In this document: one piece after another, positions 12,943-37,390 of the stretch | Layout of the letters: every line of letters begins with the position of its first letter | Numbering within the stretch: the first letter of the stretch is position 1 | Source of the DNA: an uncultured Lentisphaerota bacterium | GTDB taxonomy: Bacteria > Verrucomicrobiota > Kiritimatiellia > CAIQIC01 | Direction: 5' to 3' | Length of the DNA: 40,163 nucleotides | NCBI GenBank assembly: GCA_903889245.1 | Contig: CAISWQ010000007.1 | Location: 1 to 40,163, forward strand | Translations under genes and position numbers: made by a program | Notes under the pieces: model-generated | The model's input: only the letters and a program-made list of their open reading frames with translations | Told to the model about the DNA's origin: nothing | Database searches by the model: none

Positions 12943-12960
12943 GTGTGCTCCCTTCGTCGG

Positions 12961-12994
12961 GCGGCGAGTGTAGCCGACCCGCGCGTTTTTCCAA
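12961..12994 (-). promoter_or_regulatory. Predicted promoter of the propeller gene, -35 in the palindrome
   Basis: On the minus strand TTGGAA (12989-12994, half of a palindrome) is followed by 16 bp and TACACT (12967-12972), inside GCTACACTCGCCGC (12961-12974). The predicted leader before the ATG at 12942 is about 18 nt and holds the GGGAG site. Confidence 0.55.
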
Positions 12995-13034
12995 GGCTTG
13001 GAAAATTTTCCCCGCTTTTTTCCAAGGCTTGGAA
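12989..13034. repeat. Palindromic repeat pair
   Basis: Two identical ttccaaggcttggaa copies at 12989-13003 and 13020-13034, 31 bp apart, in the 257-bp gap between two divergent genes. Confidence 0.9.
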
Positions 13035-13059
13035 CGCCGCTCCGTCAAATTCACTCCAA

Positions 13060-13148
13060 CTTGTCTTGTGGGCGGGAGCTACAGCTCCCGCGAACCCAAA
13101 CCACAGGTTGATGAACGCGGGAGCTGTAGCTCCCGCCCACAAGACAAG
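13060..13148. repeat. Perfect 33-bp inverted repeat with nested palindromes
   Basis: Positions 13060-13092 are the exact reverse complement of 13116-13148, with a 23-nt loop. Each arm also contains its own palindrome (gcgggagct, ac, agctcccgc). The structure resembles a pair of inverted REP units, as in bacterial interspersed mosaic elements. No open frame or transposase is inside. Confidence 0.88.
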
Positions 13149-13164
13149 ACCTCGTTCCCGCTGC

Positions 13165-13199
13165 TTGGCAACCGCCAGCGCGCCCGCTATCTTCCGCGC
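13165..13199 (+). promoter_or_regulatory. Predicted promoter of the S9 peptidase, leaderless
   Basis: TTGGCA (13165-13170), exactly 17 bp, then TATCTT (13188-13193) and CCGCGC directly before the ATG at 13200. The expected transcription start falls at the ATG. No Shine-Dalgarno sequence precedes the start. Confidence 0.55.
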
Positions 13200-15500
<2,301 letters not shown>

Positions 15501-15523: not shown

Positions 15524-17848
15524 TCAGTCCCGGCGGATGAGGGGAGCGCCGGTGGGGGGCGTGTACTCGCGGGGTTGTTTCCAGAAGGTGTCGGGCGGCA
15601 CGCCGTTGATCTCCTTCAGCTTGTCGAGCGAGCGGATGACGCCGCGGTTCGGGCCGTTGGTGGCGACGGTGACGTCGCAGTAGAGATAGCGCAGCGGCAT
15701 CTTGCGCAACGGCGAGAGATCGGTGATGGCGGTTTTCCGGCAGTCGAGCTCGAGCAGCTCGCTGCCGCGCAACACCTGCAGACTGTTCACAGGTGAACCG
15801 GCGAGCTTGAGGCTGGTCAGCGCCAGGCCGCGCAGTGGTGTGAGGTCGGTGACGGAGGTGCGCTGGCAGACGACCGAGGTCAGCGGCAGGCCGCGCAGCG
15901 GCGAAAGGTCGGCGAGGCGGTAACGCGGGCCCTTGAAATCCTCACCGCTGCCAAAACGGAAGCTCTGCAGGCTGGTCAGCGCGCGCACCGGGCCGAGCCG
16001 GGTGATGGTTGGCGAGTCGAGCGCGAGCATGACGACCTTGCCGTTCTCGATCTCGTGCTGCTCCTGCTTGTCGTAACCCGGATTGATTTTCTCCAGTTCC
16101 AACGCGACACGTTCCACCTGCCAGTCTGGCGGCAACCCGGCCACTTCGGCCATGTATTCATCCGGGACCGACGGCTGCGGTGTGGGCGTGGGCGCGGGTG
16201 CGGTACTTGCGGTGCTGACGACTCGGCCGTGGCCTCCGAGCTCACGCAGTTCGGCGCGGTGGAACAGCATCGGGCCGGAGCAGCCGAGGCCGAGGCGGAA
16301 TGGATGGTTGAGCTTCCAGTAGGACGGCACGCTCATGTCGCGGTAATTCGTCTTATGTTCAAAGACCAGGTTGTCGTCCAGGAAGCCGCGCACGCTGTCG
16401 CGCCGGACCTCGACGAGCGAGACGTAGCGACGGCTGGCGGCCACGGGCGCGAGCATCACGCAGGTGGCGTTCTGCAACAACGGGGTCTCATCCACGAGTT
16501 CGAAGCCGAAGGCGCGCCCCTTGGCCCCCGCAAAGAAATCCCAGGCAAAGTCATGGCTGAACGCTGTCAGATATTGCCCGCCGCCGACCGCCGCCTTGGG
16601 GGTGAACTCGACGCGGAAATCGTATTCGCCCGCCGGTTCATAGGGGATTTCCAGGCGGGCCGTCCGCTGCTGCTTGACGACATCGCCCTGCAGGACGCCG
16701 TTCTCCAGGCGCCACTGGCCTGCGACGGTGTCACGCTTGGTCTCGAGCAACGCGAGCAGGTTGACGGGCGTCTGCCACTTGGGATAGGGCAGTGCGGGTT
16801 TCCCCGGTGCTGTCAGCGGCGGCCGGGGGATTGGTTTGATGGTCCGGTTGGTGCCGGCGGGCTGGTGGGTAACTTGGGCGACCGTGGTCGTACCGGGCGT
16901 CAGGTGCTGTACGATGATGCGTTTGACCTTGAGCGCCGCCCAGGTGAGCCAGCTTGCGAACAGCAGCAGCACAAGTCCGGCGATAGCATAGCGCGGCCAC
17001 GGCCGGCGGTGCCGGCGCGGGGGCAGCGGCAGCGGCGGCGGCGTGTCGGGTGCCACGAGATGCTGGTCGAGTTGCCACAGTTCCATCAACAAGACGTTGT
17101 AGTCATCCGGCCGCTGATCGGGATCGGCGGCGAGCATGGCCCCGAGCAGTTTGGCCAGGCCCGGCGGGCAGTCCGGCGGCAGCAAGTCCGTTTTCAGCGG
17201 CGTGCCCAGCACATGCAACTGGCTGGTGATGGTGTGGAATAGGATGCAGCCGAGGCTGTAGATGTCGGCGCGCAGGTCGAGATGACGCTCGCCGCGCGCG
17301 ACCTCCGGACTGGCGAAGCGCGCCGCCTCGGGGTCGGGCGCGGGCAACTCGGCCTCGTCGTGCTCCGCGTGCCGGGCGAAACCCAGATCAGTCAGTTTGA
17401 TCTCGCCGTCGCGCGCCACCAGCAGGCTGCTGGGCTTGAGGGAGAGGTGGATCAGTCGGGCCTCATGCCACGCCGAGCCCAGCGCCTTGGCCACATAGAG
17501 GATGATGGCGAGCGCGTCCGCGGTCGCCAGCCGGCCCTTGCGCGCGAGCCGTGCGGCGAGCGATTCGCCCTCGATCAGCTCCCCGACCACGTAGGGCATC
17601 CGGTGATAGGTGCCGATGTCGTAGATCTGCACGAGGTTCTTGTGCGTGAACTTGGTGCCCGCCGCGGATTCGCGGCGGAAGCGCTCCAGGAAGAGCGCGT
17701 TGCCGACCAGTTGGGGCGGGGGGACGCGCAGCGCCACGAAACGTTCGAGCCGCTTGTCGCGCGCCCGATAGACCGGTCCCATCGCGCCCTGGCCGATTTG
17801 TTCCAGGATTTCGTAGCTATCGAATATCTGTCCAGTCCAGCCTGCCAT
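15524..17848 (-). CDS. Membrane pseudokinase receptor with leucine-rich repeats
   Basis: A 774-residue protein with a bacterial Ser/Thr kinase fold (residues about 12-260), one membrane helix (about 287-306, AIAGLVLLLFASWLTWAAL) and a large outer part. The kinase glycine loop (IGQGAMGPVY) and DLG Asp are present. However, the beta-3 Lys is Arg (FVALRVP, R41), the catalytic HRD is HLS (S136), and the catalytic-loop Asn is Ser (LKPSS, S141). It is therefore predicted to lack phosphotransfer. After the helix come a beta-sandwich region (about 400-560, like sugar-binding DUF1080 folds) and C-terminal leucine-rich repeats (DLSPLRGLPLTS, DLTPLRGLALTS). I prefer the ATG at 17848, behind GGGGG; an ATG at 17860 overlaps the acyltransferase stop as TAATG. 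The two genes are surely co-transcribed. Confidence 0.88.
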   Translation of the reverse strand: MAGWTGQIFDSYEILEQIGQGAMGPVYRARDKRLERFVALRVPPPQLVGNALFLERFRRESAAGTKFTHKNLVQIYDIGTYHRMPYVVGELIEGESLAARLARKGRLATADALAIILYVAKALGSAWHEARLIHLSLKPSSLLVARDGEIKLTDLGFARHAEHDEAELPAPDPEAARFASPEVARGERHLDLRADIYSLGCILFHTITSQLHVLGTPLKTDLLPPDCPPGLAKLLGAMLAADPDQRPDDYNVLLMELWQLDQHLVAPDTPPPLPLPPRRHRRPWPRYAIAGLVLLLFASWLTWAALKVKRIIVQHLTPGTTTVAQVTHQPAGTNRTIKPIPRPPLTAPGKPALPYPKWQTPVNLLALLETKRDTVAGQWRLENGVLQGDVVKQQRTARLEIPYEPAGEYDFRVEFTPKAAVGGGQYLTAFSHDFAWDFFAGAKGRAFGFELVDETPLLQNATCVMLAPVAASRRYVSLVEVRRDSVRGFLDDNLVFEHKTNYRDMSVPSYWKLNHPFRLGLGCSGPMLFHRAELRELGGHGRVVSTASTAPAPTPTPQPSVPDEYMAEVAGLPPDWQVERVALELEKINPGYDKQEQHEIENGKVVMLALDSPTITRLGPVRALTSLQSFRFGSGEDFKGPRYRLADLSPLRGLPLTSVVCQRTSVTDLTPLRGLALTSLKLAGSPVNSLQVLRGSELLELDCRKTAITDLSPLRKMPLRYLYCDVTVATNGPNRGVIRSLDKLKEINGVPPDTFWKQPREYTPPTGAPLIRRD

Positions 17849-17859
17849 GGTTACCCCCA

Positions 17860-18762
17860 TTAACGGGCCTGCAATGGATCGAGTACCCAACGTTTATTAA
17901 ACCAGAAATATTGCCCCGGATGGGCGCGGATGACCGTGTCGAGTTGCGTCATGACCTCCTGTGTCAGACGCCGGTCTTCCTGCGCCACGTCGGCGCCGGC
18001 CTGCGGCCAGATGGGCGGCAGGCTCTGAAAATGATGGCGCGTCCAGCCCGCGCGCCAGACGCAGCACGGGAAGACCGGCACGCCGGCCTCGCGCGCAAAG
18101 ACCGCCAGGCCGCGGCCCATGTTCGCGCGGCCGCCGAGGAACGCGATGTCCAGCGACTCGCGCCTGGCGCGCACGTCCGGCAACATCGCCAGCACCTTGC
18201 CCGCCGTGATGCGCCGGAGCGCGAGCCGGATGGCGCTGGCATCGTTCATGATCGTCTCGATGCCGGTCGAGCTGCGCAGGCGGTTGAGGTAGGCATCGGT
18301 CAGCGGATTCTTCTGGCGTCGCGCCATGAACAGGATCGGCACGCCATAGGCCTGCGCCGCAATGCCCGCCAGATCCCAGTTCCCCATGTGCGGCACCGCG
18401 ATGACCGCGCCGCGTCCGCTGCGGAGGTGTGCTGCCACGCCGCCCTCGTCGTGGACCACCGAGAGGCGCGCGAGCTTCGCCGGCGTCAGCCGCGGGATGC
18501 GCATGATCTCGATGACGTTGAAGAACAGGTTACGCCACGCCTGCCAGGCCAGCCGCCGCCGTTCGCGCGGTGCGAACCTGTCGCCGAACACCTCGGCGAG
18601 CCGCGCCTCGGCCGCCAGCGTGCGGCGGTGGGCCGGCCACCAGCTTGCGGCCGCGCAACACCAGCCCAGCGTCAGCGCGACACGGTAGGGCAGCCAACCC
18701 ACGCCGCTCATCACCGCGCGCAACAGGCCGTATTCGAGGACATGTTTGACCCGGTATTTCAT
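17860..18762 (-). CDS. HtrB/LpxL-type lysophospholipid acyltransferase
   Basis: A 300-residue membrane-associated acyltransferase of the lipid A biosynthesis (HtrB/LpxL) type. The catalytic HxxxxD motif is HMGNWD (near residue 125), followed by the family segments ILFMARRQKNPLTDAYLNRL and MLPDVRARR, and FWFNKRW near the C-terminus. It would add a secondary acyl chain to a lipid A precursor or related envelope lipid at the inner membrane. I chose the ATG at 18762, where MKYRVKHVLEYG gives the usual start; an in-frame ATG at 18777 overlaps the predicted -10 box. The stop codon touches the next gene as TAATG, linking this enzyme to a pseudokinase, which hints at regulation of lipid modification. 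Confidence 0.9.
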   Translation of the reverse strand: MKYRVKHVLEYGLLRAVMSGVGWLPYRVALTLGWCCAAASWWPAHRRTLAAEARLAEVFGDRFAPRERRRLAWQAWRNLFFNVIEIMRIPRLTPAKLARLSVVHDEGGVAAHLRSGRGAVIAVPHMGNWDLAGIAAQAYGVPILFMARRQKNPLTDAYLNRLRSSTGIETIMNDASAIRLALRRITAGKVLAMLPDVRARRESLDIAFLGGRANMGRGLAVFAREAGVPVFPCCVWRAGWTRHHFQSLPPIWPQAGADVAQEDRRLTQEVMTQLDTVIRAHPGQYFWFNKRWVLDPLQAR

Positions 18763-34081: not shown

Positions 34082-34129
34082 GGAGAGAAAATCTGGTAAC
34101 CATTCGCCAGCGATACGTCTGATAGGGGT

Positions 34130-37100
34130 ATGAAAACATCAGATTCAAGTCCGCGCTTGTGCCCGAAATGCGGCGCCACGCTGCCTGCTGATGCCACCGC
34201 GGGTCTTTGCCCGCGCTGCCTCATGGCCGAGGCCATGGTACCCACGCAATCCGGCGCGGAGCCGGCCGGCGCGCAGCCGCCGCCGCCCTCCATCGCGCAG
34301 CTCGCCCCGCACTTTCCGCAACTCGAACTTATCGAATGCCTGGGACGCGGCGGCATGGGCATCGTCTACAAGGCGCGGCAGCCGACCTTAAACCGGCTCG
34401 TGGCGCTGAAAATTCTCGCGCCGGAACGCGAGCGCGACCCGGCCTTCGCCGCGCGGTTCGCGCGCGAGGCGCAGGCGCTGGCGGCGTTGAACCACCCGAA
34501 CATCGTGACCATCCACGACTTCGGCCAGGCGGGCGGATTTTATTTTCTGCTGATGCAATTCGTGGATGGCGTGAATTTGCGGCAGGCGATGAAGGCCGGC
34601 CGGTTCACGCCGGAGCAGGCGCTGGCCGTCGTGCCGCCGGTCTGCGAGGCGCTGCAATACGCCCACAACCACGGCATCGTCCATCGCGACATCAAGCCGG
34701 AGAATCTGCTGCTCGACAAGGAAGGCCGCGTGATGATCGCCGACTTCGGCATCGCGAAGATGCTCGGCGCGGACGCGCCCGGCGTCGGCCTCGCCGAGTC
34801 GCAGCCCGCCGGCACGCCGCGCTACATGGCGCCGGAGCAGCAGGCCGCGCCGCAAAAGGTGGATAGCCGTGCCGATATCTACAGCCTCGGCGTCGTGCTC
34901 TACGAAATGCTCACCGGCGAACTGCCCGGCCAACCGCTCGAGCCGCCCTCGAAGAAAGTCGTGCTCGACGTCCGCCTCGACGCCGTCGTCTTGCGCGCGC
35001 TGGAACAAAACCCGGAGCTGCGCTACCAGCAGGTCAGCGACGTGAGAACACTGGTCGAGACGATCGTGACCACGCCGGGCGCAACCTCCGCCGCGGCGCC
35101 CGTCGCGCCTTCCGCTCCCGCCTATCCCGAACGCACGCGCTGGCTGCTCGCGGTGCGCGGATTCATCATGGCCATCGCCTGCACGATCTTCGGGCTTCAT
35201 CTGCACCCGGCCATCTGGGGTGTTGGCGTCACAGGCTGGGGTATCGTTGGCGTCATGATCCTCTTCCGGTTGCTGTTCGCAACACGGGCCAATCAGGAAG
35301 AAGACCAGCGCGCCTTGCGCCGCGCGGCCGCCGTCAGCCACGTCCACATCATCGGTGTGATGTCCGCCGGCTTGGTGCTTGCGCTCATCAACACGGGCTT
35401 GACGAAGGAGTGGAACTATTTCTTTGCCGGCCTATTCGCCGTCGGCCTCTACGTCAGCATCCTGCGGTTGGCAAAGCTGCTGTGGCCCCGGCAAGTTCCA
35501 AGCCTTGGAAAAAACGCTGCCGCGTCTTTCCAATCCTTGGAAAACGGCGCGCAGCCTGACGAGCGCTGCCGCCGTTTGGGCAAGCTGGCGCTGCGGTTGG
35601 GCGCGGGCGGACCGGCGCTGGTCGCTGTGCTGCTGGCGTTGCGCGTGGACATCGCCTGGCCGCTCATGGTGGGGTTGGTTGCCCTCTGTGAACTTGCCGC
35701 GTTTGTCCTCGGTCTCCTCGGCTGGAAATTCTGGGCGGGCAAAGCGGCGGTGCTGGTCGCGGTACTGTTGCCGGTGCTAGCCGTGCCGGTCACGTTGCTG
35801 ATGTCATCCGGCGGCTTGATGGCGTACACCGCACACGACAGCGCGGCTATCCGTTACCGGGTGTTCATCGCGGACGCGAAAGCGGTAGACCAGTTGATTC
35901 CAGCCGGTCAGCGGCTAAACGGCGTACGGCCGGGCGCGAAGGCGTGCCAGACCCACGGCCCCAACGAGCAGGAATATTTCCAGGGCAACTTCAAGATGAA
36001 AGGCCATGTCCCGGAGGTCGAAGCGCAACGGGCGGAAATCAGTTCCGTGGCGCTGGACGCATTGCTCGCGAGCGTCCCGGAGAAGTCCGGTGTCCTGTGT
36101 GATCGGACGCGGCAACTGACAACCGATTGGTGGCAGCCCGGCATGGCCGATACGTGGATTTTCAACCGGCACGAACTGCAAAGCATGGGCAGCGGTGGCG
36201 GTCTGCTTGGACTGCGCAGTCGCAACGGCGTCCGCGAAGTCCGGTTGGAGTATTATGTGAATCACACGCTCATCGGAACCTCGCGCAGCATCGGAGCAAA
36301 ATTGCTTTACGAAGGCCCGGTCTCGGCCAGCGGCGCGCTGGCGTTCCTCGTGCCCTTCCTGCACGCGGACGACTCCGCCCACTATCTGGTCATCGTCTAT
36401 GAAGTCACGCCGCACCACCCGGCGCCACCGCCGGCCTTCGGCCCGGTGATGGAGCACGAGGTGCGCGACTTCATCGATCTCGATTCCGGCAAGCTGCTTC
36501 AGCCGCCGAATCCTCGCGCGGGGACGTGGCAGGAACGCGGTGCGACATCCGAATGGATGAAACAGCAAGGCATTGATGCCACATGGGCCAGTGATGGTTT
36601 GATCGGCGTGGGTCTTACCGTGATTCCCCTCGCCAAGGAACGCTGGAGCGATGCCACCACCCGTTGGCTGGTCGCTCAACTCAACTCCGCACCGGCACCG
36701 GAGCCCTTGGTAAAAATCGAGCGCACGGAAAATTTGCCGGTGACCGTGGGCTTCAAAACCAGGGAAGGCGGTGTCGGCATCCTGCAAATCGTCGGTACCA
36801 TCGTTGGCAGCAGAAACGACGATAACGGACTGATCATCCCGAAGATTCGCTACAAGCTGGTGCAAAGTGGCGCACCGAAAGCGGCAGCGCCAGACACACC
36901 CGCCTTCGGCCCGGTGATCGAGCGCGTGGTGGAAGAACGCTCGGCCACGGGTAAGGAGTGTTTCCTCGACCTCGATACGGGGAAATGCGTGATGATCGAA
37001 CCGGTGAAATTTCAAGGCGGCTTGGAAGACGCGCTGAAGGCCGAGGCGGTGGCCTTCGCTCGCGTGGGAGCGGATGTCGCCGCCATGCCCCCGGAAACTT

Positions 37101-37390
37101 CGCTCGTCAGCGGGTTGATGGGACTGGATCTGGTGGCGCTGCCGGTCGGCCCGGAAATCTGGAATACCGCCGCAACGGAATTCATTTTCGATGCAGTGTC
37201 CGGTTACAAGGCCGGTTCGGTCACACCGATGAGTGCGAATGGAAAGCTGCCCGCCACGTTTGTGTTCAAGACCCGCGAAGGCGGTCGCGGCGTGCTGCAA
37301 ATCCTCGCCTTCACCGACAACCCGCGCGGCGTGAAGCTTCGCTACAAGCTGGTGCATAATGCCGAAATAACCTCATCAACCGTTCGCTGA
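34130..37390 (+). CDS. Receptor Ser/Thr kinase with zinc ribbon and duplicated C-terminal domain
   Basis: A 1086-residue membrane kinase. It begins with a zinc ribbon (C11, C14, C27, C30) and has a complete kinase domain (about 65-315): LGRGGMGIVY, K94 in VALK, HRDIKPENLL (D187), and DFG (D205). Several membrane helices follow (about 340-560). Between them, residues about 456-472 (VPSLGKNAAASFQSLEN) are encoded by a pair of intergenic-type palindromes, an in-frame insertion. The last 320 residues contain two tandem units of about 155 residues, each opening with PAFGPV and a DLDxGK phrase (near 767 and 923). Unlike the kinase at 15524, all catalytic residues are kept, so it should be active. 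It follows a sigma factor gene, its likely partner. Start ATG at 34130. Confidence 0.94.
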   Translation: MKTSDSSPRLCPKCGATLPADATAGLCPRCLMAEAMVPTQSGAEPAGAQPPPPSIAQLAPHFPQLELIECLGRGGMGIVYKARQPTLNRLVALKILAPERERDPAFAARFAREAQALAALNHPNIVTIHDFGQAGGFYFLLMQFVDGVNLRQAMKAGRFTPEQALAVVPPVCEALQYAHNHGIVHRDIKPENLLLDKEGRVMIADFGIAKMLGADAPGVGLAESQPAGTPRYMAPEQQAAPQKVDSRADIYSLGVVLYEMLTGELPGQPLEPPSKKVVLDVRLDAVVLRALEQNPELRYQQVSDVRTLVETIVTTPGATSAAAPVAPSAPAYPERTRWLLAVRGFIMAIACTIFGLHLHPAIWGVGVTGWGIVGVMILFRLLFATRANQEEDQRALRRAAAVSHVHIIGVMSAGLVLALINTGLTKEWNYFFAGLFAVGLYVSILRLAKLLWPRQVPSLGKNAAASFQSLENGAQPDERCRRLGKLALRLGAGGPALVAVLLALRVDIAWPLMVGLVALCELAAFVLGLLGWKFWAGKAAVLVAVLLPVLAVPVTLLMSSGGLMAYTAHDSAAIRYRVFIADAKAVDQLIPAGQRLNGVRPGAKACQTHGPNEQEYFQGNFKMKGHVPEVEAQRAEISSVALDALLASVPEKSGVLCDRTRQLTTDWWQPGMADTWIFNRHELQSMGSGGGLLGLRSRNGVREVRLEYYVNHTLIGTSRSIGAKLLYEGPVSASGALAFLVPFLHADDSAHYLVIVYEVTPHHPAPPPAFGPVMEHEVRDFIDLDSGKLLQPPNPRAGTWQERGATSEWMKQQGIDATWASDGLIGVGLTVIPLAKERWSDATTRWLVAQLNSAPAPEPLVKIERTENLPVTVGFKTREGGVGILQIVGTIVGSRNDDNGLIIPKIRYKLVQSGAPKAAAPDTPAFGPVIERVVEERSATGKECFLDLDTGKCVMIEPVKFQGGLEDALKAEAVAFARVGADVAAMPPETSLVSGLMGLDLVALPVGPEIWNTAATEFIFDAVSGYKAGSVTPMSANGKLPATFVFKTREGGRGVLQILAFTDNPRGVKLRYKLVHNAEITSSTVR
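35496..35542. repeat. Palindromic repeat pair inside a coding sequence
   Basis: ttccaagccttggaa (35496-35510) and ttccaatccttggaa (35528-35542), 32 bp apart, in frame within the receptor kinase gene between membrane segments. The translated string VPSLGKNAAASFQSLEN has no counterpart expected in a kinase. Confidence 0.92.

What the first reader, a model, noticed from the sequence alone, without database searches (positions are those of the whole stretch)
15524..17848. Pseudokinase receptor fused to LRR, coupled to a lipid acyltransferase
Three catalytic positions are lost together: beta-3 Lys to Arg, HRD Asp to Ser (HLS) and catalytic Asn to Ser, while the glycine loop and DLG Asp remain. The outer part has a beta-sandwich and leucine-rich repeats. 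The gene follows an HtrB-type acyltransferase with a TAATG junction. A non-catalytic sensor controlling or scaffolding envelope lipid acylation would be a novel pairing.
Basis: partly seen in the sequence, partly recalled or inferred. Interest (0 to 1): 0.72.

Follow-up and report, generated by a model that had tools for sequence, protein, structure and literature searches.

The report
Pseudokinase receptor beside lipid acyltransferase
A membrane receptor whose kinase domain has lost key catalytic residues sits just behind, and is probably made together with, a lipid acyltransferase in a Lentisphaerae-type bacterium; it looks like a lineage-specific offshoot of active leucine-rich-repeat kinases, and its control over the acyltransferase is unproven.

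Summary
The sequence claim holds. Window 15524-17848 (minus strand) encodes a Pkinase domain, one TM helix, a beta-rich stretch and internalin-like LRRs. Against PknB, beta-3 Lys is Arg, HRD Asp is Ser and catalytic Asn is Ser; the Gly loop, alpha-C Glu and DLG Asp remain. In a survey of 152 kinase domains only this protein and its same-genus ortholog combine the Lys and Asn losses. The ortholog (58% identical) keeps the HRD Asp, so the losses came in steps. In a kinase tree the pair is nested, on a long stem, inside a genus-specific clade of canonical kinases. dN/dS 0.38 over the kinase domain argues against decay. The lipid acyltransferase gene lies directly upstream in both species where this can be read (gaps 11 and 15 nt), but it occurs in 54 of 56 relatives, mostly without a kinase nearby, including one congener. 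So the acyltransferase does not need the pseudokinase; the pairing is genus-specific, tight and probably co-transcribed, but evidence that one controls the other is weak. Most likely a non-catalytic (possibly nucleotide-binding) co-receptor of the active LRR kinases. New variant of a known kind (bacterial pseudokinases); moderate interest.

The parts
17860..18762 (-). HtrB/LpxL-type lipid acyltransferase gene (MKYRVKH..., stop TAA at 17860-17862)
   Evidence: Pfam PF03279 132.6 bits; HX4D motif; class-wide family, 54 of 56 genomes
17849..17859 (-). 11-nt junction between the acyltransferase stop and the homologous start of the pseudokinase; a TAATG overlap start also exists
   Evidence: sequence; ortholog start in L032
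15524..17848 (-). pseudokinase-LRR receptor gene (774 aa from MAGW; residue numbers in this report count from the upstream ATG, P0001, 778 aa)
17054..17815 (-). kinase domain, residues 16-269
   Evidence: Pfam match; AF2 pLDDT mostly about 90 or more, lower near the activation loop; Foldseek to PknB/PknA
17771..17794 (-). glycine loop GQGAMGPV, GxGxxG retained
   Evidence: alignment
17726..17728 (-). R45 in place of beta-3 Lys
17441..17443 (-). S140 in place of HRD Asp (Asp kept in the ortholog)
17426..17428 (-). S145 in place of the catalytic-loop Asn
17387..17389 (-). D158 of DLG, retained
16904..16990 (-). probable transmembrane helix, residues 291-319, Arg-rich on the kinase side
   Evidence: hydrophobic sequence; helix in model
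16214..16789 (-). beta-rich ectodomain shared with LRR-kinase paralogs; fold not resolved
15527..16165 (-). internalin-like LRR region

Best explanation
A membrane-spanning pseudokinase receptor that arose by duplication from the genus's active LRR kinases and was kept for a non-catalytic role. Its cytoplasmic kinase fold, perhaps still nucleotide-binding through Arg45-Glu64 and the DLG Asp, is proposed to pair with active LRR-kinase paralogs and modulate them, with the LRR/beta-rich part sensing something outside the membrane. It is probably co-transcribed with the upstream lipid acyltransferase, so its dose would follow envelope lipid synthesis. Shown: domain make-up, residue losses, descent, purifying selection, conserved adjacency. 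Inferred: lack of activity, pairing with paralogs, ligand sensing, membrane topology, co-transcription.
For: Residue losses by alignment, rare among 152 domains; orthologs group 100/100 and are nested in an 11-row kinase clade (99/97) on a stem of length 1.0; dN/dS 0.38 for the kinase domain, 0.28 for the N-lobe; the activation segment has lost the GTPxY motif (EAARFASPE against MGTPHYMSPE); kinase fold modelled confidently; beta-rich and LRR regions shared with active paralogs in the same genome; tight same-strand adjacency in two species; the PknB Leu33 and Asp76 positions are conserved by alignment (their dimer role is from my own knowledge).
Against: No activity, binding or expression data. 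Only one full ortholog; the G002 copy starts inside the domain at a contig edge. dN/dS is a rough Nei-Gojobori pairwise estimate. The ortholog keeps the HRD Asp. No direct sign of heterodimers.
Confidence: 0.45

Rival explanations
1. The pseudokinase directly controls or scaffolds the acyltransferase: its cytoplasmic fold binds the enzyme and tunes lipid acylation in response to an envelope signal.
For: Tight adjacency kept in two species at about 58% protein identity although the junction differs in length; the genome has LpxC and WaaA-type matches, so lipid A is probably made; mycobacterial MviN carries a pseudokinase domain (PMC12599244).
Against: The acyltransferase occurs in 54 of 56 genomes and usually has no kinase beside it, congener G001 included; part of the surrounding gene order is also shared by descent; LRR-kinase paralogs sit beside unrelated genes.
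Confidence: 0.2
2. It still has catalytic activity, kinase or another transfer such as AMPylation, with an unusual active site.
For: Glycine loop, alpha-C Glu, catalytic-loop Lys and DLG Asp are retained and the N-lobe is the most constrained part; SelO and SidJ show new activities in pseudokinases (PMC12599244).
Against: HRD Asp and Asn are both lost here and the GTPxY motif is gone; no compensating conserved Lys is evident in the N-lobe alignment.
Confidence: 0.15
3. A decaying duplicate with no present function.
For: Long stem branch; a further Asp loss in this species only; no LRR or beta-rich matches in congener G001.
Against: Open frame over the full length in two species, a third copy open to its contig edge, dN/dS 0.38 and LRR part 71% identical.
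Confidence: 0.12

Closest known systems
PknB/PknA-type bacterial Ser/Thr receptor kinases
   Same: kinase fold, TM helix, external sensing part; best sequence and Foldseek matches
   Different: catalytic residues lost; LRR and beta-rich ectodomain in place of PASTA
Canonical LRR kinases of the same genome (e.g. G000:C69, C93, C54)
   Same: same kinase clade; LRR region, and in C69 and C93 also the beta-rich domain, is homologous
   Different: they keep beta-3 Lys, HRD Asp and Asn; domain order differs in C69; not next to this acyltransferase
DYD pseudokinases (PMC12599244)
   Same: beta-3 Lys to Arg, membrane-associated
   Different: DYD members lack alpha-C Glu and are described from actinobacteria and firmicutes; here Glu is present and the motif is DLG
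MviN pseudokinase (ActPs3, PMC12599244)
   Same: a pseudokinase domain linked with an envelope protein
   Different: there it is a domain of the MviN protein; here a separate receptor gene beside an acyltransferase

Membership tests
Protein kinase superfamily (PF00069) | profile match over cut-off and bilobal fold | tested here: met
   106 bits against 31.7; model and Foldseek
Active Ser/Thr kinase | beta-3 Lys, HRD Asp, catalytic Asn and DFG Asp all present | tested here: not met
   three of the four lost
Pseudokinase | loss of one or more catalytic motif residues | tested here: met
Pseudokinase | no measurable phosphotransfer | not testable with these tools
   needs an assay
DYD pseudokinase family | alpha-C Glu absent and DYD motif | tested here: not met
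   E64 present, DLG
Lipid A acyltransferase family (neighbour gene) | PF03279 match and HX4D motif | tested here: met
LpxL/LpxM equivalogs (neighbour gene) | NCBIfam equivalog cut-off reached | tested here: not met
   best 104.6 bits against cut-off 248

The most novel reading that the evidence does not exclude
A dead-kinase LRR receptor, co-expressed with a lipid acyltransferase, that directly gates envelope lipid acylation in response to an extracytoplasmic signal.
Probability: 0.15. Interest if true: 0.7.

Novelty: new variant of a known kind. Interest (0 to 1): 0.35.

Why it matters
Bacterial pseudokinases are little characterised. Here a lineage-specific loss of catalytic residues sits inside a clade of canonical receptor kinases from the same genus, with an intermediate that still has the HRD Asp. 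That makes the stepwise conversion of a receptor kinase into a pseudokinase testable. If a link to lipid acylation were shown, it would be a new way of regulating the outer envelope.

Tried and rejected
Relatives in viral contigs: none. WNK-style compensating Lys: no conserved candidate seen in the N-lobe alignment. DYD family: rejected on alpha-C Glu. A general kinase-acyltransferase pairing across phyla: among 80 loci fetched around related kinases, only the G003 ortholog and one other (L105, Archangium) held such an acyltransferase; L105 not followed up. Beta-sandwich fold: the AF2 job on three sequences gave pLDDT 48.8, so it was not searched. TAATG overlap as the true start: judged less likely than the downstream ATG.

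Full report
Check of the observation. The minus-strand ORF ending at 15524 gives a 778-aa protein from the TAATG start, or 774 aa from the next ATG at 17848. Pfam finds Pkinase at residues 16-218, 106 bits. Alignment to PknB and to 152 kinase domains places R45 at beta-3 Lys, S140 at HRD Asp and S145 at the catalytic Asn, with GxGxxG, E64, K142, D158 and the APE-type Glu kept. In that survey the Lys-to-Arg plus Asn-to-Ser pattern occurs only here and in the ortholog. Among the kinases found in this genome this is the only one without the HRD Asp. The sequence observation is therefore sound and not chance.

The upstream gene. 17860-18762 encodes a Lip_A_acyltrans protein with HMGNWD, an HX4D motif. 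It falls well below the NCBIfam equivalog cut-offs for LpxL/LpxM, so 'lipid acyltransferase' is safe and 'LpxL' is not. The genome has LpxC and WaaA-type matches, consistent with lipid A synthesis.

Relatives. The ortholog in congener G003 (58% identical) has beta-3 Arg and Ser for Asn but keeps the Asp (HFD). The G002 copy begins inside the domain at a contig edge, after the catalytic loop, so its motifs and upstream gene cannot be read. The G002 and G003 records are titled uncultured Lentisphaerae MAGs. In G003 the acyltransferase is directly upstream (TGA, 15 nt, ATG). Congener G001 has the acyltransferase (72%) with no kinase next to it and no match to the LRR or beta-rich regions at the thresholds used. 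Across 56 genomes the acyltransferase is found in 54; of 20 relatives' neighbourhoods read, some of them short, only G003's has a kinase. An acyltransferase tree pairs G000 with G001 (93/98), just short of the tool's starred level. If that is right, the pseudokinase was in the genus ancestor and was lost in G001.

Descent and constraint. In a 54-row kinase tree the two orthologs group 100/100 within an 11-row clade of kinases from this genus (99/97), on a stem of length 1.0; the others are canonical at the surveyed positions, and several carry the same LRR or beta-rich regions. Pairwise dN/dS between the two species is 0.38 over the kinase domain, 0.28 for the N-lobe, 0.44 for the C-lobe and 0.41 for the LRR part. 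That is purifying selection; the long stem fits relaxation or a change of role. The canonical GTPxY stretch before the APE region is replaced by EAARFASPE.

Structure. AlphaFold2 with 40 sequences gave a confident bilobal kinase, a TM-length helix at 291-319 and moderately confident LRRs around 650-730; the beta-rich part was not resolved, and a separate job on it was poor. Foldseek puts the kinase with mycobacterial PknB and PknA. PknB Leu33 and Asp76, which I recall as dimer-interface positions, are conserved here by alignment; this is only compatible with dimerisation.

Neighbours of the paralogs. Gene picks around five LRR kinases of this genome and two loci in congeners show unrelated genes beside them (read by eye from ORF starts, without domain searches). 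So an LRR kinase next to a gene does not by itself imply function. The acyltransferase pair stands out in being tight and kept in two species; with two usable genomes that is modest evidence.

Known context. A 2025 review (PMC12599244) describes bacterial pseudokinase families, including DYD with Lys to Arg and ActPs3 in MviN, and says bacterial kinomes range from no pseudokinases to 67%. A text search of that paper found no mention of LRR, leucine-rich, acyltransferase, Planctomycetes, Verrucomicrobia or Lentisphaerae. Three library searches, for pseudokinases or LRR kinases in these phyla and for pseudokinase with lipid A acyltransferase, gave no evident precedent in the titles and abstracts shown; the library is partial.

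Verdict. Observation confirmed with small corrections; interpretation partly supported. Most likely a non-catalytic co-receptor derived from active LRR kinases, probably co-transcribed with the acyltransferase. New variant of a known kind.

Noticed in passing
L014 (G000:C74:1975-2730), L216 (G001:C21), L229 (G003:C90): A second non-canonical kinase family kept in three genomes of the genus: beta-3 Arg, no alpha-C Glu at the aligned position, HLD and a DFD motif, features recalling the DYD pseudokinases; in L014 and L229 a reading frame that looks like a LysM/L,D-transpeptidase protein lies on the same stretch.
   Followed up: partly
G000:C28:74076-115897: A cluster of about eleven Pkinase genes, seven of which fall in one tight clade of the kinase tree.
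   Followed up: no
window, e.g. 4365, 12989, 13020, 18831, 25769, 35496, 38798: Short palindromic repeats with a TTCCAAG/CTTGGAA core, 43 core matches in the window, several of them between genes.
   Followed up: partly
window 12945-15500 (+): DPPIV/S9 peptidase ORF with an extra N-terminal match to the VHL beta domain (PF01847, 39 bits).
   Followed up: no
window 34100-37387 (+): A second, canonical Pkinase protein of 1096 aa in the same window.
   Followed up: no
L105:9497-10513 (Archangium): A lipid acyltransferase-like ORF close to a kinase in a different phylum; probably chance.
   Followed up: no
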